DNA of 64,000 bases, from the NCBI GenBank assembly GCA_021799485.1, contig JAJZAK010000005.1:1-64000 (forward strand), written 5' to 3'. The stretch comes from a bacterium. Lineage in GTDB: Bacteria; Elusimicrobiota; Elusimicrobia; UBA1565; UBA9628. The position numbers were made by a program, and so were the translations under genes. Below the pieces are notes generated by a model. It saw only the letters and a program-made list of their open reading frames with translations, had not been told where the DNA came from and did no database searches. Each line of letters begins with the position of its first letter. Position 1 is the first letter of the stretch. Positions 6,902-45,350 of the stretch are shown one piece after another.

Positions 6902-7159
6902 GTGTCCGGCACCGGCTCGGCCGACGTCCAATGGATTCGCATCCCGGGCGGGAGTTTCATGATGGGGATGGACGATTCGAACAGTAATTTCAGCGATGCC
7001 AAGGCCGTGCACGAGGTGGCGGTTCCTTCTTTTGACATGTCGAAGACCTTGGTGACGAACAAGCAGTATCAAGCCTGCGTGGACGCCGGGGCGGACGGAA
7101 CGGGGAAAGACTGGAGCGGCGGCAAGCTCGCGGTGGACTTCCATGGCGCTTCGCTCTAA
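6902..7159 (+). pseudogene. N-terminal fragment of a formylglycine-generating-enzyme (SUMF1/FGE) domain
   Basis: An 85-residue frame from GTG 6902 shows the opening of an FGE-sulfatase domain: 'WIRIPGGSFMMGMDD' followed by 'AVHEVAVPSFDMSKTLVTN'. Complete domains of this family run to about 220 residues, so more than half is missing and the frame ends shortly after 'DGTGKDWSGGK'. It overlaps the start of the ankyrin-caspase gene by 17 bases. FGE-like domains are frequent partners or fusions of bacterial caspase-like proteases, so this may be what remains of a neighbour or fused domain. It is probably non-functional. Confidence 0.65.
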
Positions 7160-8732
7160 ATTCTTCCCCGGGGCGCCGCTCGCCGCCGCCCTGCTGGCGG
7201 CCGTTTTATGTCCGCCCGCCTTCGCCAAGAGCCTGAGCGCCCGGCTCTATGAGGCCGCTCGCGACGGCGACGCGGGTTCGGTGCAGGCGCTCCTTGACCA
7301 GGGTGCCGATCCCAACGCGCGGCATGGCGGCTGGATGATCCCGCCTTTCTTCTACTTCGCCAGCGGAGAAACGCCCTTATGCGCGGCGGCCAGGATCGGC
7401 CATGCCGATGTCGCGTCGTTGCTCCTGAAAGGCGGCGCGGACCGGGAGAAGACATGCCTCGGCGATGTTGCCGCGCCCATAGTCGGGTTATGGATCGGCC
7501 ATGGCTATACGCCTCTCCTGGTCGCCCTCAAGAAAAATAACGTAGAAGCGGTGAAAGCTCTCTTGGCCGGATCGGCCGATCAAGCCATTAGAGACGTTGT
7601 CTCTCAAAGGGCTGCGCTTGGAGCTTGGGGGATAACGCGGAGCATCGGAAACGTACAAACGGGGACCTCATTTGGCCTTGTCTTTTACTTCCTCCCTTAC
7701 TGGGAGGTCATGGATAGCGCCAGCACGCTGTTGGCTGGACTGCAGAAACAAGGCGATTTTCGCGCGACACGAGCCGTTCTCGCGGCCATCGGCGCCAATC
7801 CGAACGCTTCGAGAAACCTTTGGGATAAAATCGCCTTCGGGATCTCAAACGGCGACGTCGACGCCGTGAAATGGGCGGCGGCCAATAGTTGGCAGGGGCA
7901 AAAGCCGTCGCCAGCCGGGACGGCCGCGGCGGGGAGTTCGGACATGGAGTCGCAGGTCCGCCAGATCGAGGACAAGATCGTCTCGGACGTGGACGTGCCG
8001 CGATTCAAGCGGCGGCCAGAAAACCCGGACGCCATCGCCGTGGTCGCCGGCATCAGCCGCTACCAACTGCCTCTTCCGCGGGCGATGTATGCGCGCCGCG
8101 ACGCCGCGACGGTCTACCGATACCTTCTGAGGCTGGGCGTGAAGCCAAGCCGCGTCAAGCTCCTGCTGGACGATAAGGCGACCGGAGGAGCCCTCAAGTA
8201 CGCCCTCAACCGCTGGCTCCCGGACAACGCGAAGCCCGGCTCGACCGTCTACTTCTACTTCTCGGGCCACGGCGCCCCGGACGTCGGGTCGAACAGCGCC
8301 TACCTCGTGCCCTGGGACGGCGACCCCTCGGACTTAAAGGACACCGCCGTCGCGCTTGCGGACGTCTACGGGCGGCTCGGAAGGCTCGGGGCCAAGCACG
8401 TGCTCGTGGCGCTCGATTCGTGTTTTTCAGGCGCGGGCGGGCGCTCCGTCATCGTGCCGGGGGCGCGGCCTCTCGTGACGCGGCTGACGCAGGCGCTGCT
8501 GCCGCCCGGCGTCACGGCCATGACGGCCGCCCGGGGGGACCAGATCACGCAAGTCGACAAAGCCGCGGGGCACGGGCTTTTTACCTACTACTTCCTGCGC
8601 GGCCTCAACGAGGACATGGACGATGTCCGCAAGCTATGCGCGTATGTCGAGACGAAAGTGGCGGATCAATCGGCGCTGGCGGGCGTCCCGCAGAATCCTC
8701 TCTGCATGGGCCCGGACTTCGTGATCAAGTAA
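7143..8732 (+). CDS. Secreted ankyrin-repeat caspase-like (C14) peptidase
   Basis: A 529-residue protein with a signal peptide (about residues 1-28, ending 'PPAFAKS'). Ankyrin repeats follow at about residues 30-150 ('DAGSVQALLDQGADPN', 'GHADVASLLLKGGADRE'), then a less regular region, and a caspase-like domain at about 295-525. The catalytic histidine is in 'YFYFSGHGAPD' and the cysteine in 'ALDSCFSGAGGRS', the two hallmarks of peptidase clan CD. The export signal predicts a periplasmic or extracellular location. It lies inside a segment bounded by ispG-derived direct repeats. A relative with the same two domains is encoded at 41738-44227. Confidence 0.85.
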   Translation: MALRSKFFPGAPLAAALLAAVLCPPAFAKSLSARLYEAARDGDAGSVQALLDQGADPNARHGGWMIPPFFYFASGETPLCAAARIGHADVASLLLKGGADREKTCLGDVAAPIVGLWIGHGYTPLLVALKKNNVEAVKALLAGSADQAIRDVVSQRAALGAWGITRSIGNVQTGTSFGLVFYFLPYWEVMDSASTLLAGLQKQGDFRATRAVLAAIGANPNASRNLWDKIAFGISNGDVDAVKWAAANSWQGQKPSPAGTAAAGSSDMESQVRQIEDKIVSDVDVPRFKRRPENPDAIAVVAGISRYQLPLPRAMYARRDAATVYRYLLRLGVKPSRVKLLLDDKATGGALKYALNRWLPDNAKPGSTVYFYFSGHGAPDVGSNSAYLVPWDGDPSDLKDTAVALADVYGRLGRLGAKHVLVALDSCFSGAGGRSVIVPGARPLVTRLTQALLPPGVTAMTAARGDQITQVDKAAGHGLFTYYFLRGLNEDMDDVRKLCAYVETKVADQSALAGVPQNPLCMGPDFVIK

Positions 8733-8751: not shown

Positions 8752-9036
8752 ATGGCGGCGCTGGATGACGCCGAGAACGTCCTGCTGGCGGCCGCACTGC
8801 TCGACGCGGATCAGGCCCGAAAGGCGCGCGAGCGCTTGGCCGCTTTGAAGCTCCCCTCGGACTATTTCCCTCAGGTCGCGCTTGATCTGGAGCTGGCCAG
8901 CAGGGAGGCGATTCTGGCCGCGCTCTCAAAGGCGTGGAATATCCCGGTTGCTTCTCCGTCGGCCTTGAATGGCCAGGATACGGTGTGGGACTGGGAGTCG
9001 TTGGCTTCCTACGAAATGTGCGGTAGGAATCTTTGA
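8752..9036 (+). CDS. Small protein resembling a GspE/MshEN N-terminal domain
   Basis: A 94-residue frame from ATG 8752, 19 bases after the caspase stop. Residues 1-65 are helical and recall the N-terminal domain found in type II secretion and type IV pilus ATPases: 'DYFPQVALDLELASREAILAA' then 'WNIPVASPSAL'. No ATPase domain follows; the frame ends at TGA 9034-9036. It could be a remnant of a larger gene or a free-standing domain. No clear ribosome binding site is seen. Confidence 0.4.
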   Translation: MAALDDAENVLLAAALLDADQARKARERLAALKLPSDYFPQVALDLELASREAILAALSKAWNIPVASPSALNGQDTVWDWESLASYEMCGRNL

Positions 9037-38378: not shown

Positions 38379-39050
38379 TCAGAAGTAGTTTAAGTACCGG
38401 CCTTCGTATTCGTCGAAAAGCCCGTATTCCCGCAGCTTCTCTCCCAAGCGCTTGAGAACGCCGCGGTCGGCCTCCGCGTCGGCGAAGAGCGCCTCGATCT
38501 CGCGTCGGCGTCGGTCCTCGGCGTGCCGGGCTGGATCGAACAGCCCGCGGCGCCCCAGGTCCCGCATGTGGGTGGGAAACGAGCGAGCCGCCTCGTCGAT
38601 CGTCAGCTTCATGAGAGCCAGCGTCCACGCGCCGTCCGGGCAAAGAACCAGGGCCTTCTTTTCGTTGCCTTCGCCCTCCCATGATTTGGCGAGACGGCTC
38701 GCGAGAGCCTCCGAGTTTTCCGAGAGAACGTTCGATCGCATGTCCTGGTTTTTGAAGACGTACTGCAAGGCCCTGAGGGCGTCTCCATAGTTCGATCTCA
38801 GGAAATCAAGGAACGGCGCCGCCTCCGGCCCGAAGCCCTGGAAGCGCTCTTTTAAGGCGTCGGCCGTCAGGATTTTGGGGCGTTCCGAGAGGACCTTGCC
38901 CGAGCGAAGCCTCGTCTTGTCCGCGAGTTGGTCGACGGGAGAAAGAAGATGGTATTCGATCTCGGTCGAGCCGAAGGTCGCGAGGATATGCTTGGGCTGC
39001 CTCAGCACCGAGGTCTTGGCCAATAAAGATTGAATGGTCTTGGGGTCCAT
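38379..39050 (-). CDS. Hypothetical protein
   Basis: A 223-residue soluble, largely helical protein with no signal peptide or membrane span. Charged residues are frequent and no motif is recognised; 'LVLCPDGAWTLALMKLTIDEA' in the middle is the most distinctive stretch. The end 'YEGRYLNYF' is aromatic. It sits between ahcY (upstream, 59 bases) and the PAS kinase on the same strand, so it may share regulation with ahcY. I cannot assign a function. Confidence 0.6.
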   Translation of the reverse strand: MDPKTIQSLLAKTSVLRQPKHILATFGSTEIEYHLLSPVDQLADKTRLRSGKVLSERPKILTADALKERFQGFGPEAAPFLDFLRSNYGDALRALQYVFKNQDMRSNVLSENSEALASRLAKSWEGEGNEKKALVLCPDGAWTLALMKLTIDEAARSFPTHMRDLGRRGLFDPARHAEDRRRREIEALFADAEADRGVLKRLGEKLREYGLFDEYEGRYLNYF

Positions 39051-39109
39051 GGGAGGGCCTCTAAACTAGGCAATCCATAGATTGGTTAGTCTTCCGGATC
39101 TTTCGCGGC

Positions 39110-40447
39110 TCAGTACCGGTAATAATCCGGCTTGTAAGGCCCTTCCTGGGGAATGCCCAGGTATTCGGCCTGCTTGGATGTGAGCTTGGTCAAGTTCGCC
39201 CCGAGCCGGCCCAAATGCAGGCGAGCCACTTTCTCGTCGAGGGCCTTGGGGAGCATATAGACGTCCTTCTTGTATTTCCCGCCGCCCTTATTCTTCCACA
39301 GTTCGATCTGGGCTAGGACCTGATTCGTGAAGGAGGCGCTCATGACGAAGCTCGGATGCCCTTGTCCGCAGCCCAAGTTGACGAGACGGCCCTCCGCCAG
39401 CACGATCAGCACTTTGCCGTCGGGCCAAATGTAATGGTCCACCTGCGGCTTGATCGTCTCGCGCGTCAGCTTCTTGTCGCTATTAAGGGAGGCGATATCG
39501 ATTTCGATGTCGAAGTGCCCGATATTGCAGACGACGGCATGGCTCTTCATGCGGTCCATGTGGGACTTCGTGATCACGTCGCGGCAGCCGGTGGCCGTGA
39601 CGAAAAGGTCGCCGACGGGAGCCGCCTGGTCCATCGTCACGACTTGGAAGCCCTCCATCGCGGCCTGGAGCGCGGTGATGGGGTCGATCTCCGTGATGAG
39701 GACGCGCGCGCCGAGTCCCTTGAAGGCCTGGGCGCAGCCCTTGCCCACGTCGCCGTAGCCGCAGACGACGGCGGTCTTGCCCGCGATCATGATGTCGGTC
39801 GCGCGCTTGATCCCGTCCACGAGGGATTCGCGGCAGCCGTAGAGGTTGTCGAATTTGGATTTCGTGCAGGAGTCGTTCACGTTGATCGCGGGCGCGCCCA
39901 GCGTGCGCTGCTGCGCGCGCCGAGCCAGGCGGTGAACGCCGGTCGTCGTCTCCTCCGTGATCCCGCCCAGGCCGTCGAGGTATTCCGGGTATTTTTCATG
40001 AACCATCTCGGTGAGGTCTCCGCCGTCGTCGAGGATCATGTTGAGGGGCTTGCCGTCGGGCCAGCGGAGCGTCTGCTCGATCGCCCAATCGAATTCCTGG
40101 GTGCTCATGCCTTTCCAGGCGAAGACCGGGATGCCCCGCGCCGCGACGGCGGCGGCGGCGTGGTCCTGCGTCGAGAAGATGTTGCAGGAGCTCCATCGCA
40201 CCGTCGCGCCCAGCTCGGTCAGGGTCTCAATGAGGACGGCCGTCTCGATCGTCATGTGGAGGCAGCCCGCGATCCGGGCGCCGTCCAAGGGGCGCTTGCC
40301 GCGGAATTCCTCCCGAAGAGCCATGAGCCCCGGCATCTCGGACTCGGCCACCTCGATTTCCTTGCGGCCCCAGTCGGCGAGGCTCAAATCCTTGACTTTG
40401 AAATCACGCGCGGGGCCGGCCTTCGTCTTCGCGGCGGCTGTGGTCAT
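39110..40447 (-). CDS. ahcY: S-adenosylhomocysteine hydrolase
   Basis: A 445-residue enzyme that splits S-adenosylhomocysteine into adenosine and homocysteine, removing the product inhibitor of methyltransferases. It shows '[19 protein letters not shown]', the NAD-binding '[20 protein letters not shown]', and the C-terminal 'KPDYYRY' whose Lys and Tyr reach into the partner subunit's NAD site. AAGGAGG precedes the ATG. A TATAAT box lies 41-46 bases upstream. The length is normal for bacterial AhcY. Confidence 0.97.
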
Positions 40448-40488
40448 GAATCCTCCTTTAAATAAAATTGAGCGGCGGAAAGCGTAGT

Positions 40489-40494
40489 ATTATA
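40489..40494 (-). promoter_or_regulatory. Putative -10 box of ahcY
   Basis: A perfect TATAAT on the minus strand (40494-40489), giving a leader of about 35 bases with AAGGAGG near the start codon. The -35 region is weak. The leader is too short for a SAH or SAM riboswitch. Confidence 0.5.
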
Positions 40495-40554
40495 CTTTTT
40501 GCGGCGCGAGATTCTTTCGCCGCGCGGCCGCCGGGGCCGGCGATGGGTGGCGAC

Positions 40555-41577
40555 TTAATCGGCGGGACTTGCGACGGGACTTGATGGCTGCGGCTCCGGC
40601 GCGGGTTTTGCCTTTTTTACCAGCGCGCAAAGAGCGGGATTGCGGCTTGACATGCATGCTTGATACATCAGGAGATATTGACGTTTGGTCAGCGGAAGTC
40701 CGGGGGCCGCGGCTTGCGGCGGGGGTGTTTCCAGGGTCGCGGCGGCCTGCCACTCGGCGATTTTATCCTTGAGTTTTCGGGCGTTAGGATCGTCGGGGCG
40801 GAGCGCCAGGTATCGCTGCATGTATTTTCCCGCGGCGGGATAGTTCTTTAATTTCCCCAAGACCAAGGAGAGATCGTAGTAAGGCTCCGACCACCAGGGC
40901 GCGGCCTCGATCGCCTTTTCAAAATAGGCCGCCGCGCGGTTGAAATGCTCGTGCTCGATCATGTAGCGGGCCTGGACCGAGGCCGTATGGGCGTTCTCCG
41001 GGATGTCCTTGGGCGCGCGCCCGGAGCGGACCATTCCGACGATTTCTTGGAAGCGCTCCGCGGCTTTTTTCTCTTGTTCCTTTAGCTCCTTTCGCGAGCG
41101 AGCCCGCTTCTCCGCCAGCCATCCCAGGACCTCGTTTCGGGCGGCGGCGTTATAAACTATGCCGTATGGATTGGCGCCGTGCTCAAGCAAAATCCTCGCG
41201 ATGGCCGCGTCATGGCTGCATGCCAGAGGGGTGAGCTTGGAAAGGAGGGGATCGTTGTTTATGGTGCCCAGCATAATGGGGCACATGAAGATGCCGATTC
41301 CGGGCAATCCAAGAACTGGGAACAGAGGCGAGCAGATAGGCATTTCACAGGCATTAACCCTGAAAAAAGACATGGCGGCTGGTCCGGACTGGTTGGGATC
41401 GGCCCCCGCGGCCAGGAGAGACTGGACCTCCCGGACGTTTCCCTCGGCGGACGCCCGGATGAGAGGGGTGCTGCATCCCGAGAACGCGGCGAGGGGGATC
41501 GTCCATGCCAGAATAAGCCGTTTCACCGCGGAGGTCTCCGCGCTTTGGGTTTTTGAATCCATGAGAATTTCTTTCAT
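40555..41577 (-). CDS. Lipoprotein with ankyrin and tetratricopeptide-like repeats
   Basis: A 340-residue protein with a lipobox 'LAAFSGC' (Cys35). Ankyrin-type units are at about residues 38-62 ('EGNVREVQSLLAAGADPNQ') and 115-145 ('HDAAIARILLEHGANP'), interrupted by a Cys/Pro-rich stretch. TPR-like units follow at about 205-275 ('YFEKAIEAAPWWSEPYYDLS'). The tail is Pro/Ala-rich. The ATG directly follows the TAA of a 44-residue gene, with AGAGG as ribosome site, so it is coupled to it. It is the last gene of a unit led by the ankyrin-caspase protein at 44227. Confidence 0.75.
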   Translation of the reverse strand: MKEILMDSKTQSAETSAVKRLILAWTIPLAAFSGCSTPLIRASAEGNVREVQSLLAAGADPNQSGPAAMSFFRVNACEMPICSPLFPVLGLPGIGIFMCPIMLGTINNDPLLSKLTPLACSHDAAIARILLEHGANPYGIVYNAAARNEVLGWLAEKRARSRKELKEQEKKAAERFQEIVGMVRSGRAPKDIPENAHTASVQARYMIEHEHFNRAAAYFEKAIEAAPWWSEPYYDLSLVLGKLKNYPAAGKYMQRYLALRPDDPNARKLKDKIAEWQAAATLETPPPQAAAPGLPLTKRQYLLMYQACMSSRNPALCALVKKAKPAPEPQPSSPVASPAD

Positions 41578-41712
41578 TTAATCGCCGCCTCTTTGAAGGG
41601 AGTCCTCGGCCTCCCAGCCGACGTCCGCGCGGCCGCCCTCCACGGCGTCCATCAGGGCCGTCGCCGCCGGCCTCGCGATTTTCCAGGGGTTCTTGCCATC
41701 GGGCATGATCAT
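41578..41712 (-). CDS. Small conserved-context protein (44 residues)
   Basis: An open frame from ATG 41712 (or ATG 41706) to TAA 41578 with AAGGAGA as ribosome binding site directly upstream. The product begins 'MIMPDGKNPWKIARPAATAL' and ends with an acidic stretch ('ADVGWEAEDSLQRGGD'). It lacks a signal peptide. It fills the gap between the caspase gene (stop at 41738) and the ankyrin-TPR lipoprotein, whose ATG abuts its stop. Function unknown; by position it could modulate the caspase protein. Confidence 0.6.
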   Translation of the reverse strand: MIMPDGKNPWKIARPAATALMDAVEGGRADVGWEAEDSLQRGGD

Positions 41713-41737
41713 GCTCTCCTTTTTATAAATCGATCAA

Positions 41738-44227
41738 TCAGCGCAGGCCGATGTCGGCGCCCTCGAGGACGGGGTCCTGGATGTCGTTCTGCCTGCGCGC
41801 GGCCTTCTCCACTCGCGGCTTGATGAAATCGTAGAGATTCCGGACGCGGCGCGGCTTTAAATTCAGGCCCTTCAGAAAATAGTAGGTCAACAGGCCGTGC
41901 CCGTGGACTTTTGAAACGGCGGCGATCTCCGTCCCCTTGGCCGCGGCCAACGCGGCCATGCGCGGCCCCAAGGGGACGCCCCCGATCCTCGTGACGACGA
42001 GGGGGCGAACTCCCTTGGCCATGACCGAGCGGGCTCCGGCGCCCGAAAAGCAGGCGTCCATGACGACGAGCGTGCGTTCGGCATGAAGGCGGGCCAGATC
42101 CGCGTAGAGCCTGTCGACGGGAAAGCCCTGGTCGCGGATGAACTCGGGAACGGCGTCCCACGGCACGAGATAGGCCGAGCGGGAGCGCGGGTCGGGCGCG
42201 CCGTGGCCCGAAAAGTAGAAATAGACGCGGGACTTCGATCCGACGTTCTTAGGCAGATAGTCCTCGAGGTAGCTGCTCAAGCCGCTGAGCGTAGCGGCCG
42301 AATCCAAGAGGGAAATGATGTTGCCGCCGGGGACCCCGAGGGCGGCGAAATATCTCCCGGCGGCCTCGGCGTCCCTTTTGGCGAAATCGGCCCGGGGCAG
42401 GCTTCGGTAGGATTCGATCCCGACCACGAGGGCCCAGTCGTTAGGACGGCGAGGGTATCTGAAGGCAGGGCTGTCCATGTCCGAGATCGGAAGGCTTGGA
42501 GGCGGGGCCTCGGCCTTGGCGGTTTCCGAGCTTTCGAGGATTCCGACGATCTCGGGGCGCGACGGTGTTTCACGGGCGAGGTCCAAAGCCGTGAGTCCGT
42601 CATCGTCCCTAAGGCTCTCGTCGGCCCCGGCCGCAAGCAGGAGCCTCGCCAATTGGGCCGAGCCGGCCATGATCGCGTAGTCGAGGGCCGTCATGCCGAC
42701 CTGATCTTGGATATTGACGCCGGCGCCGAGGGCCAGAAGCCGCCGTGCCGCTCCGGTCCGCCGGCCCGCGGCCGCGTACATGAGCGGCGTGCGCCCCTTG
42801 TGGTCGGTCAAGTCGACTCGAGCGCCCGCGGCCACGAGGGCCGAGGCGGCGGCCGGCTGGTTCGCGTAAGCCGCCGCCATGAGCGGCGTGACCCCTCCGG
42901 CGCCGGCTTGATTGGGGTCTTGCCCCTGGCGGAGGAGCTCCGCGATTTGGGCCGCGCTGCCGCTCCGCGCGGCCTGATAGATCGGGCCGCGCGGGAGGAT
43001 AAACTTGAGCGCGCGGCGGCCCGGATGTCCCCGGACGGAAGGCGCGGCCGCCGGCTGGGGAGTCGGACGAGAGACCGCCGAGTCGGGGGAGGCGGTCGTC
43101 TGCCAACTGAAGGCCGGGGAATCCTCGGCACCCGAGCCGGAAGGCGCCGCGCTTGGGGCGTCGCCGACCTCCGGGCCGCCCATCTCGGCCAGGAGTTCGT
43201 CGGAGGCCTTCTTTTTCCGGCGGCGCTCCCTCGATGCGGCGGCCTTGGCCTCGTCGTTTTGAATCTCCGCCAGATCGCCTCGGCAGTCCGCGAGAGAGCG
43301 CTGCGCCTCTTGGATTTGCCGCGCCAGGTCTCCGCCGGGAACGGAGGGACCCTTCGCGGCCAGCGCGCTCAGGCGCTGGTCCAAGAGGGAGCGCGCCGAG
43401 GACCCGCTCTTCGCGCGATGGCAGGGCAAGGGCCGGCAGGCCCACCCGCCGGAGAGGGCCTGGGCGGGCCGGCCGTAGAGGCCGCAAAATGGCTTTTGGT
43501 CGGCGCCTTCGATATCGAGCGCAAGCCGGCTCCAGTCGCTCGCGGTATAAAGGCAGGCGGTCCGGCCGCCGCGGAGCCGGACCCGGACGGTGTTCGATTC
43601 GCAGAGGCAGGCGCGCCCCTTGGGGCAAATCAAGGCTTCCGGAGCCGCCGAACCCGGGCAGGATCGACCGTTGGAGTCGACATAGCCGCCGGAGAGATCG
43701 GGCCTATCCGATCTGCCGGGTTTCTTGCCGAGTTCCGCCAGAAGATCGTCTCGAATCGAGGCTTTCCGCCGCGCCCGCTCCTCGTCCGCTTTCTCCGCGG
43801 CGTTCATGGCGCGGATCCGATCGCGGCAAGCGGCGTCCATGGTCTGGAATTTTTGGAGGGCCTGACGCATCTGCTCAAGGGCTTTTTGCCGCGCCGCTTC
43901 GGCGGCTTCCTGGCTTTGGCTCCGGCCCCCGCCGAAAAGAAGCTCGCCGATGTCCTGGCCGAGTTGGTAGCCTAACTGCGAAGCCCCTTGCATAAGGAGG
44001 CCTTGCATGGCATTGCGGGGATTGTAGGCTCCGCCGAATGACGAGCCGCCCCCCGCCGACCCGTAGCCGCAATGGCTCGCGCAGTCGGTTCCCGGAGGCT
44101 GGTTAACGCCGCCGGGATCGCAGGCGCAGTGGACTGAGACCAAGCTCTGGGCTTGGGACGGCGAAGCGCGAAAAACCAAGCATGCGCCCGCCGCTAGTAG
44201 GGAAACCGTTCGGAGATCCCGCCCCAT
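41738..44227 (-). CDS. Secreted ankyrin-repeat caspase-like (C14) peptidase, large form
   Basis: An 829-residue protein with a signal peptide (to about residue 27, 'SPSQAQS'), a Gly/Cys-rich and helical N-terminal region with several paired cysteines (about residues 30-290), an Ala/Pro linker, four or five ankyrin repeats (about 410-565; 'GVTPLMAAAYANQPAAASAL', 'GRTPLMYAAAG') and a caspase-like domain (about 595-820). The catalytic His is in 'YFYFSGHGAPD' and the Cys in 'VVMDACFSGAGARS'. TATAAT on the minus strand at 44247-44242 gives a leader of only a few bases. It is a paralogue of the 7143-8732 protein. Confidence 0.88.
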   Translation of the reverse strand: MGRDLRTVSLLAAGACLVFRASPSQAQSLVSVHCACDPGGVNQPPGTDCASHCGYGSAGGGSSFGGAYNPRNAMQGLLMQGASQLGYQLGQDIGELLFGGGRSQSQEAAEAARQKALEQMRQALQKFQTMDAACRDRIRAMNAAEKADEERARRKASIRDDLLAELGKKPGRSDRPDLSGGYVDSNGRSCPGSAAPEALICPKGRACLCESNTVRVRLRGGRTACLYTASDWSRLALDIEGADQKPFCGLYGRPAQALSGGWACRPLPCHRAKSGSSARSLLDQRLSALAAKGPSVPGGDLARQIQEAQRSLADCRGDLAEIQNDEAKAAASRERRRKKKASDELLAEMGGPEVGDAPSAAPSGSGAEDSPAFSWQTTASPDSAVSRPTPQPAAAPSVRGHPGRRALKFILPRGPIYQAARSGSAAQIAELLRQGQDPNQAGAGGVTPLMAAAYANQPAAASALVAAGARVDLTDHKGRTPLMYAAAGRRTGAARRLLALGAGVNIQDQVGMTALDYAIMAGSAQLARLLLAAGADESLRDDDGLTALDLARETPSRPEIVGILESSETAKAEAPPPSLPISDMDSPAFRYPRRPNDWALVVGIESYRSLPRADFAKRDAEAAGRYFAALGVPGGNIISLLDSAATLSGLSSYLEDYLPKNVGSKSRVYFYFSGHGAPDPRSRSAYLVPWDAVPEFIRDQGFPVDRLYADLARLHAERTLVVMDACFSGAGARSVMAKGVRPLVVTRIGGVPLGPRMAALAAAKGTEIAAVSKVHGHGLLTYYFLKGLNLKPRRVRNLYDFIKPRVEKAARRQNDIQDPVLEGADIGLR

Positions 44228-44300
44228 AACATGGTCGCGCGATTATACTTTTTTACTATACTTTCCCGCCGAAATCAGGACCTCATAATAAGGAGAAGAG

Positions 44301-44684
44301 ATGATGAAATACTTCGCGCTTTTGGGCAGGATCTGTTACGCGGCGATTTTCCTCATGGCGGGACCGAACCATTTCAGGGCCTCGACGATTGCCTACGCGG
44401 CGTCCCAAGGGGTGCCCTTGGCGCCGTTCGCCGTTCCCGTGTCGGGAGCCTTGGCGATCCTTGGCGGCTTGAGCATCGCGCTGGGGTTCAAGGCCCGGTG
44501 GGGCGCCTGGCTGATCGCGCTGTTTCTTATCCCCGTCACTCTCACCATGCACCGCTTTTGGGGCCTCGCCGACCCCCAGGCGGCGATGGTGCAGCAGATC
44601 ATGTTCATGAAAAATCTCTCGATGTTGGGGGCGGCGCTGCTCATGACCCAGGTCGGGTCGGGGCCGTTGAGCGTCAGGGACTGA
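44301..44684 (+). CDS. DoxX family membrane protein
   Basis: A 127-residue protein with four membrane spans. 'RICYAAIFLMAGPNHF' opens the first span, and 'LAILGGLSIALGFKARWGAW' and 'MFMKNLSMLGAALLM' are typical of DoxX. The family includes subunits of respiratory quinol oxidases and redox-linked membrane proteins; the role here is open. AAGGAGA precedes ATG 44301. It diverges from the ankyrin-caspase gene. Confidence 0.85.
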   Translation: MMKYFALLGRICYAAIFLMAGPNHFRASTIAYAASQGVPLAPFAVPVSGALAILGGLSIALGFKARWGAWLIALFLIPVTLTMHRFWGLADPQAAMVQQIMFMKNLSMLGAALLMTQVGSGPLSVRD

Positions 44685-44730
44685 GAGCGGGGCTGTCAAG
44701 AGCCGGACGTCGGACTCTTGGTCCGGGCGC

Positions 44731-44759
44731 TTGAATCCGAAGTCGCCTGGTAGTATGAT
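44731..44759 (+). promoter_or_regulatory. Putative promoter of the DksA-like gene
   Basis: TTGAAT at 44731-44736 and TATGAT at 44754-44759, spacing 17. The predicted start near 44766 leaves a leader of about 65 bases before ATG 44832. Confidence 0.55.
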
Positions 44760-44831
44760 GAAAAAGTAGCGCAACCGCGCGCAGCGGCGATGGCGAGGCG
44801 GAAAATCCGGTAAAAAAGGCGGATATCGAAA

Positions 44832-45350
44832 ATGGCAAACAAGAAAATTTCTTCTTCAAGCGCAAAGTCCCGCGGGGGGAAGTCCTCATCGACGGCGCAA
44901 AAGCCCCTCTCTCGCGGGAAGGAAAAGGTCAAGGCCCCGCGCCTGCCGGTGGCCGCCTATAAAAAACAGCTTCTTGAAATGCAGGAAAGCCTTGGCCGCA
45001 CGGTGATGGCGAGACCCATGCGGGAGACGGGGCGGGAGGAGCCCGGCGACGAGGCCGATCAGGCGAGCCAGTCGTTGGAGAAGGAGATCCTCTTCGAGCT
45101 CTCGGGAAACGAACGCTTGATGCTCGATCAAATCGAGGCCGCCCTCAAGCGGATCAAGCAGGGGACTTACGGGATTTGCGAGCGCTGCCATAGGCCCATC
45201 CCCAAGGCCCGCTTGGACGCCATTCCTTACACGCGCTACTGCCTCGTCTGCCAGAGCTCCTCGGAGCGCGTCGTGGAGTCTTCCGCGGAGGCCGCGGAGT
45301 CGACGCCGGGGCTGGAAGAGACGGCCGCCGCCGTCGAAGGGGAGCCTTAA
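44832..45350 (+). CDS. DksA/TraR-type C4 zinc-finger protein
   Basis: A 172-residue protein. A basic, serine-rich N-terminus (about 40 residues) precedes a helical hairpin with acidic residues ('RLMLDQIEAALKRIKQGTYG') and a C4 zinc finger 'CERCHRPIPKARLDAIPYT' completed by 'CLVCQ'. DksA-type proteins enter the secondary channel of RNA polymerase and with ppGpp tune rRNA and stress promoters. The N-terminal basic extension and the acidic C-terminal tail are longer than in E. coli DksA and closer to YocK/RsmH-type variants. Confidence 0.85.
   Translation: MANKKISSSSAKSRGGKSSSTAQKPLSRGKEKVKAPRLPVAAYKKQLLEMQESLGRTVMARPMRETGREEPGDEADQASQSLEKEILFELSGNERLMLDQIEAALKRIKQGTYGICERCHRPIPKARLDAIPYTRYCLVCQSSSERVVESSAEAAESTPGLEETAAAVEGEP

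What the first reader, a model, noticed from the sequence alone, without database searches (positions are those of the whole stretch)
40555..44227. Three-gene ankyrin-caspase operon with an unannotated 44-residue protein and an ankyrin-TPR lipoprotein
The larger ankyrin-caspase (829 residues) is followed by a tiny gene with a good ribosome site and then a lipoprotein whose ATG abuts the tiny gene's stop. The small protein lacks a signal peptide while both others are exported, so it could act in the cytoplasm as a guard or regulator. Protease, small protein and ankyrin-TPR lipoprotein together resemble an effector-adaptor-anchor module. I know of no described system with this layout.
Basis: inference. 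Interest (0 to 1): 0.7.

Follow-up and report, generated by a model that had tools for sequence, protein, structure and literature searches.

The report
Caspase-bearing variant of envelope gene pair
In an unnamed bacterium, a secreted caspase-like protease gene and an envelope lipoprotein gene sit together as what looks like a one-genome variant of a gene pair found in its relatives, and the tiny gene between them is probably a leftover ankyrin fragment rather than a working third partner.

Summary
Three minus-strand frames abut: an 829-aa signal-peptide/ankyrin/caspase protein, a 44-aa frame with coding-like codons and a ribosome site, and a 340-aa ankyrin-TPR lipoprotein. The interpretation needs changing. 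(1) The layout is unique: none of 340 phylum genomes has the small frame or a clear relative of the caspase's N-terminal half. Two congeners with 93-94% identical flanking SAH hydrolase carry an unrelated gene at this site. (2) The small frame contains half an ankyrin repeat and is about 80% DNA-identical over 44 bases to another ankyrin gene of this genome, so a decayed fragment is likelier than a guard protein. (3) The two large genes resemble a recurring pair in related families: a TPR lipoprotein like this one beside a secreted Cys-rich coiled-coil protein (14 of 22 contigs). The caspase's first 410 residues are weakly but repeatedly detectable as such a Cys-rich protein. I propose a caspase-armed version of this pair: the lipoprotein tethers, the partner delivers an Arg/Lys-type caspase in the envelope. 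Domains, gene order and conservation are computed; mechanism is inferred. The pair itself, with variable C-terminal domains and no description found, is the more interesting finding.

The parts
41738..44227 (-). Secreted ankyrin-caspase gene, 829 aa (P0001): signal peptide, Cys-rich/coiled-coil half, ankyrin repeats, caspase domain
42998..44149 (-). Residues 27-410: Cys-rich, Gly-rich, coiled-coil half; possible divergent relative of the 'Cys-rich partner' family found beside TPR lipoproteins
   Evidence: weak, profile level; not reported
42548..42997 (-). Residues 411-560: ankyrin repeats
41741..42436 (-). Residues 598-829: Peptidase_C14 domain; His675 (codon 42203-42205) and Cys726 (codon 42050-42052); flexible loop 731-748 after the Cys
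41578..41712 (-). 44-aa small frame (42 aa from ATG 41706); residues 17-31 are half an ankyrin repeat
41716..41721 (-). AAGGAG, ribosome-site-like
40555..41577 (-). Ankyrin-TPR lipoprotein, 340 aa (P0003); lipobox Cys35
41140..41520 (-). Residues 20-146: lipobox, ankyrin and hydrophobic Cys-hairpin module (C..P.C..GLPGIGI.MCP) shared with lipoprotein ankyrin-caspases of another genus
40729..41019 (-). Residues 187-283: TPR region (confident helices), similar to TPR lipoproteins that pair with Cys-rich secreted proteins
44242..44253 (-). AAAAAGTATAAT, promoter-like 12-mer before the caspase gene
40489..40500 (-). Second, identical AAAAAGTATAAT at the other edge of the cassette, before the SAH hydrolase gene; conserved there in two congeners

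Best explanation
The locus is a caspase-bearing version of a two-gene envelope module found in related families: a secreted Cys-rich/coiled-coil protein plus a TPR (often ankyrin-TPR) lipoprotein. Here the secreted partner has an ankyrin-caspase tail. Proposed working: one promoter drives the genes; the lipoprotein is membrane-anchored and its ankyrin and TPR surfaces hold or present the secreted partner; the partner's caspase, of the metacaspase/MALT1 (Arg/Lys) type, is held as a zymogen and activated by cutting in the flexible conserved loop after Cys726, then cleaves envelope or external proteins. The small frame is an ankyrin-derived remnant, perhaps translated, with no needed role beyond possibly passing ribosomes to the lipoprotein start. 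Shown by computation: frames, domains, synteny, the recurring pair, absence of the small frame elsewhere. Inferred: family membership of residues 27-410 (weak), tethering, substrate type, activation, remnant status.
For: TPR lipoproteins hit by P0003 lie within 1.5 kb of a Cys-rich secreted protein on 14 of 22 contigs (13, G040). Same order with an Ank-TPR lipoprotein in L208 and L227; reverse order in L229. A TPR lipoprotein precedes a Cys-rich protein in a further family (L250). P0001 is the best of 610 proteins for four versions of the Cys-rich profile (13.7-28.9 bits); for three of the four no shuffle (of 1000) and no reversed natural protein (of 947) reaches its N-terminal half. In one search the natural proteins above that half are family members, P0001 itself, and in the first profile one gene between a TPR lipoprotein and its Cys-rich partner (L234_1). 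Caspase dyad conserved in 57 aligned relatives, His invariant and Cys nearly so; ankyrin-caspase model pLDDT 91.1 with a low-confidence loop at 731-748 that holds conserved residues; nearest solved relatives by profile are metacaspases and MALT1. Small frame: half ankyrin, 0 of 2000 shuffles reach its score, 80% DNA identity over 44 nt to another ankyrin gene, E 3e-5.
Against: The phylum search with the Cys-rich alignment did not report P0001 in its own genome (7 of 21 candidates scored). One of the four profiles (without L208, L209) gives only 7.0 bits for the isolated half, with 1 of 1000 shuffles and 1 of 947 reversed proteins at or above it, and two unrelated proteins slightly above it. 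Aligned parts are short and coiled-coil-rich. hhalign aligned 18 columns only. P0003's N-terminal module is closest to lipoprotein ankyrin-caspases, not to the TPR lipoproteins. 8 of 22 contigs with a TPR hit show no Cys-rich neighbour. No direct sign of physical interaction or cotranscription.
Confidence: 0.45

Rival explanations
1. Tandem-duplication origin: the lineage often carries two caspase genes in a row, many of them lipoproteins. The lipoprotein here descends from the second caspase of such a pair, its caspase domain replaced by TPR repeats; the pair now works as active enzyme plus non-catalytic regulator.
For: P0003 residues 20-146 match the N-terminal module of lipoprotein ankyrin-caspases at 38-43% identity; 11 of 80 fetched loci hold two or more neighbouring same-strand caspase frames.
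Against: Ank-TPR proteins without any caspase neighbour exist (L206, L207, L208, L227, L229), so no caspase ancestor is needed; the module could have spread by recombination.
Confidence: 0.25
2. One reading: protease, cytoplasmic small guard or regulator and lipoprotein anchor form a three-part effector-adaptor-anchor system.
For: Small frame has coding-like codons, an AAGGAG site and sits exactly between the two genes.
Against: No relative in 340 genomes; absent from the nearest two-gene analogues; content is half an ankyrin repeat; a cytoplasmic product would not meet two exported partners after export.
Confidence: 0.08
3. The small frame is a translated coupling peptide: its ribosome site recruits ribosomes and hands them to the lipoprotein start, which has only a weak site; its sequence does not matter.
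For: TAA abuts ATG; lipoprotein start has only a GAGG about 11 nt upstream, small frame has AAGGAG.
Against: Single genome, no comparative test; the codon bias suggests more than a neutral leader.
Confidence: 0.2
4. The two large genes are chance neighbours delivered together by one recent insertion, with no shared function.
For: Congeners have an unrelated gene at the site and the edges carry an identical 12-mer, so the block is movable; this gene order was not seen in any other genome.
Against: Short spacing on one strand (25 and 0 bp around the small frame); secreted-partner plus TPR-lipoprotein pairing recurs.
Confidence: 0.2

Closest known systems
Bacterial metacaspases / orthocaspases (Pfam PF00656 Peptidase_C14)
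   Same: p20-type caspase domain with His-Cys dyad; nearest solved sequences by profile are metacaspase-1, MCA2, metacaspase-9 and MALT1.
   Different: Exported and ankyrin-fused; in the 2012 survey (PMC3501461, passages read) the word ankyrin does not occur in the main text and Elusimicrobia (the phylum I suspect, untested) had none.
MaOC1 orthocaspase with downstream toxin-antitoxin pair (PMC7935541, passages read)
   Same: Caspase gene followed by small genes; direct repeats nearby.
   Different: MaOC1's neighbours are a ParE/ParD-like pair flanked by 152-bp repeats; here one ankyrin-derived frame and a lipoprotein, and a 12-bp promoter-like repeat.
Polymorphic toxin systems with caspase-like processing or toxin domains and ankyrin repeats (PMC3482391, passages read)
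   Same: Secreted N-terminal part, repeats, caspase as terminal domain, variable C-terminal domains in the proposed partner family, linked second gene.
   Different: No known toxin, delivery or immunity domain found; the second gene is a TPR lipoprotein.
TPR lipoproteins such as PilW/PilF-type pilotins (NCBIfam TIGR02521)
   Same: Lipidated TPR protein; P0003 scores 19.1 bits.
   Different: Far below the curated cut-off (154 bits); carries an ankyrin module; no pilus or secretin genes recognised beside it.

Membership tests
Peptidase_C14 caspase homologues | Domain match above Pfam gathering score | tested here: met
   35.1 bits vs 21.4; 13 of 13 aligned lineage members match
Peptidase_C14 caspase homologues | Catalytic His and Cys | tested here: met
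   SGHG and DACFSG in P0001; His invariant, Cys nearly invariant in 57 rows
Peptidase_C14 caspase homologues | Protease activity, Arg/Lys preference | not testable with these tools
   Needs purified protein
Proposed Cys-rich secreted partner family (defined here) | Sequence similarity of residues 27-410 | tested here: inconclusive
   Best of 610 proteins, 13.7-28.9 bits, but not reported
Proposed Cys-rich secreted partner family (defined here) | Adjacent TPR lipoprotein gene | tested here: met
   P0003, with the 44-aa frame between
Three-component system with conserved small protein | Small frame conserved with the two large genes | tested here: not met
   No relative in 340 genomes; no genome keeps both large genes
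Ankyrin repeat proteins (small frame) | At least one full repeat | tested here: not met
   Half repeat only, residues 17-31; no Pfam hit
PilW-type pilotin | NCBIfam cut-off | tested here: not met
   19.1 of 154 bits
Known anti-phage defence systems (PADLOC) | Match to a complete described system | tested here: inconclusive
   Only generic caspase and ankyrin models match P0001; no system gene set tested

The most novel reading that the evidence does not exclude
The Cys-rich secreted protein plus TPR or ankyrin-TPR lipoprotein is an undescribed envelope system of this lineage that works like a polymorphic effector system: a conserved secreted front end carries interchangeable C-terminal domains (FecR in one genome, a possible cysteine-peptidase-like domain in another, ankyrin-caspase here), and the cognate lipoprotein anchors, matures or restrains it.
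Probability: 0.2. Interest if true: 0.75.

Novelty: new variant of a known kind. Interest (0 to 1): 0.45.

Why it matters
What exported bacterial caspases do is an open question. This lineage has many (caspase-domain matches in 42 of 57 genomes searched, up to 30 per genome). A caspase that may be the tail of a secreted protein with a recurring lipoprotein partner gives a concrete place to look for its anchor, trigger and substrate. The two-gene module is a new target even if the caspase link fails.

Tried and rejected
The small frame as conserved gene: searched in 44 family genomes and 340 phylum genomes; best foreign match E 0.0122, 22 residues, treated as chance. The small frame as a frameshifted piece of P0001 or P0003: other frames show no ankyrin pattern, and it does not align to either better than shuffles (117, 384 and 613 of 1000 reach the scores). 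Internal promoter or terminator between genes: the scan is at the level of shuffles for terminators and lists no minus-strand promoter in 39000-45000.

The genome-contig scan with P0003 found only one distant ankyrin match, in an archaeal bin. Plasmids: no match for P0003. Single-sequence search of solved structures with the caspase domain: none; the profile finds metacaspases and MALT1. Structure searches with the ankyrin-caspase model were filled by ankyrin proteins, so no caspase fold was listed; the TPR lipoprotein model hits only generic TPRs, none at E 0.001 or better. Phylum name: I suspect Elusimicrobiota from recall; no call names it.

Counting notes: one search covers 26 TPR-region hits on 22 contigs; one further hit (G032:C238) was not fetched widely. 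G037:C77 counts although its Cys-rich gene is 1135 bp away. Of 15 Cys-rich matches with E below 1e-11, 13 have an adjacent TPR lipoprotein, but 12 of the 13 profile rows were chosen through that adjacency; of the 3 found without it (G187, G217, G145) one has it (L250). L229 was not recovered. L208 and L209 were first noticed by eye as P0001-like. Gene calls come from my own simple codon-scored caller and are rough.
Full report
What is there. The first encodes a signal peptide, a Cys-rich and coiled-coil half, ankyrin repeats and a caspase domain with both dyad residues. The third has a lipobox, ankyrin repeats and TPRs. The small frame has gene-like codon use (3 of 399 non-genic frames reach its per-codon score, itself included) and an AAGGAG that best fits its second ATG.

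Where it comes from. In two congeners (SAH hydrolase 94 and 93% identical) the flanks are kept at 76-89% DNA identity, but the block between them holds a 314-361-aa gene with no Pfam match instead of the three genes. The block in this genome is edged by an identical 12-mer, AAAAAGTATAAT. It occurs twice in 64 kb with up to one mismatch (0.05 expected). Each congener locus has it once, at the SAH hydrolase promoter. Replacement through this short repeat is possible; a shared promoter type explains it as well.

How rare it is. Residues 1-418 of the caspase match nothing convincing in 340 phylum genomes (two marginal hits, E about 0.002 and 0.003). The small frame matches nothing convincing either (best E 0.0122). 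The lipoprotein's N-terminal module appears in full in three genomes of another genus, there fused to caspases, and in part in others. The caspase domain itself is very common here: 42 of 57 genomes, this one included, up to 30 matches per genome.

The small frame. Residues 17-31 match the first half of an ankyrin repeat. Against a profile built from this lineage's repeats it scores 18.0 bits; 0 of 2000 shuffles and 1 of 3000 natural 44-residue pieces without an obvious ankyrin motif reach that. Most of its best protein matches are ankyrin proteins, and 44 bases are 80% identical to an ankyrin gene on contig C36 (E 3e-5). The rest of the repeat is distorted by an insertion. A fragment of an ankyrin gene that kept a start and a ribosome site is the simplest reading. 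Translation is not excluded.

The pair. TPR-region hits of the lipoprotein lie on 22 other fetched contigs. On 14 of them a secreted Cys-rich, coiled-coil protein lies within 1.5 kb, mostly overlapping or within a few bases (13, G040). Gene order varies. In G042 it is twice Cys-rich protein then Ank-TPR lipoprotein, overlapping by 4 bases (L208, L227), the window's order without the small frame. In G018 (L229) the order is reversed with no gap. A further family has the pair too (L250). C-terminal parts of the Cys-rich proteins differ: FecR in L209, an unassigned domain in L206 that looks like a cysteine peptidase to my eye only, none in L231 and L232. In G009 a caspase gene lies divergently beside the pair.

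Is the caspase such a partner? Profiles of the Cys-rich family rank P0001 first among 610 proteins in all four versions tried (E 1e-4, 1.3e-3, 3.9e-8, 4.1e-5). For the isolated half the scores are 15.6, 7.0, 26.4 and 23.2 bits. No shuffle of 1000 reaches the first, third and fourth; one reaches the second. No reversed natural protein of 947 reaches the first, third and fourth; one reaches the second. Held-out family members score in the same range in two of the profiles. Against this, the phylum search with the family alignment did not report P0001; only 7 of 21 candidates in that genome were scored. I hold membership as likely, not shown.

How it may work. The caspase model is confident (pLDDT 91.1) except for residues 731-748, soon after the catalytic Cys726, where Arg733, Gly739, Arg741 and Pro742 are invariant or nearly so among 57 relatives. 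A flexible conserved loop at this place is what one expects of a zymogen cut between its two halves (inference from known caspases). The nearest solved proteins by profile, metacaspases and MALT1, cut after Arg or Lys (recalled), and the Asp before the Cys fits that (recalled). The lipoprotein's TPR stretch is predicted with high confidence and resembles peptide-binding TPRs only in a general way. So: exported caspase, held by a lipoprotein, set free or active on cutting; target unknown.

Verdict. Observation right; guard role of the small frame unlikely; a caspase-bearing variant of a recurring secreted-protein plus TPR-lipoprotein pair is the best account. No description of such a pair or layout appeared in the searches made; these cover open-licence papers only. 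Papers were read as passages, not whole: PMC3501461, PMC7935541, PMC3482391; the others were seen as listings.

Noticed in passing
window 7143-8732: Second ankyrin-caspase gene (529 aa); an 85-aa FGE-sulfatase-like fragment (6902-7159) overlaps its start by 17 bp and a 94-aa coding-like frame without Pfam match (8752-9036) follows after 19 bp.
   Followed up: partly
L206, L208, L209, L220, L225, L227, L229, L231-L236, L250: Recurring pair of TPR (or Ank-TPR) lipoprotein and secreted Cys-rich coiled-coil protein with variable C-terminus; no Pfam family for the common part.
   Followed up: partly
G011, G013 and others: Very large caspase-domain expansion, 25-30 matches in single genomes, many frames with signal peptide or lipobox, often in tandem.
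   Followed up: partly
window 40489-40500 and 44242-44253: Identical 12-bp promoter-like repeat edging the cassette.
   Followed up: partly
window 41140-41520; L010, L011, L012, L025, L029: Ankyrin lipoprotein module with hydrophobic Cys hairpin (C..P.C..GLPGIGI.MCP), fused to caspase, TPR or more ankyrin.
   Followed up: partly
L084 5417-8985: Another caspase-lipoprotein operon in the same genome: 862-aa caspase followed with 4-bp overlap by a 327-aa lipoprotein.
   Followed up: no
L086 4459-5871: Ankyrin lipoprotein with a C-terminal FGE-sulfatase domain; source of the best DNA match to the small frame.
   Followed up: no
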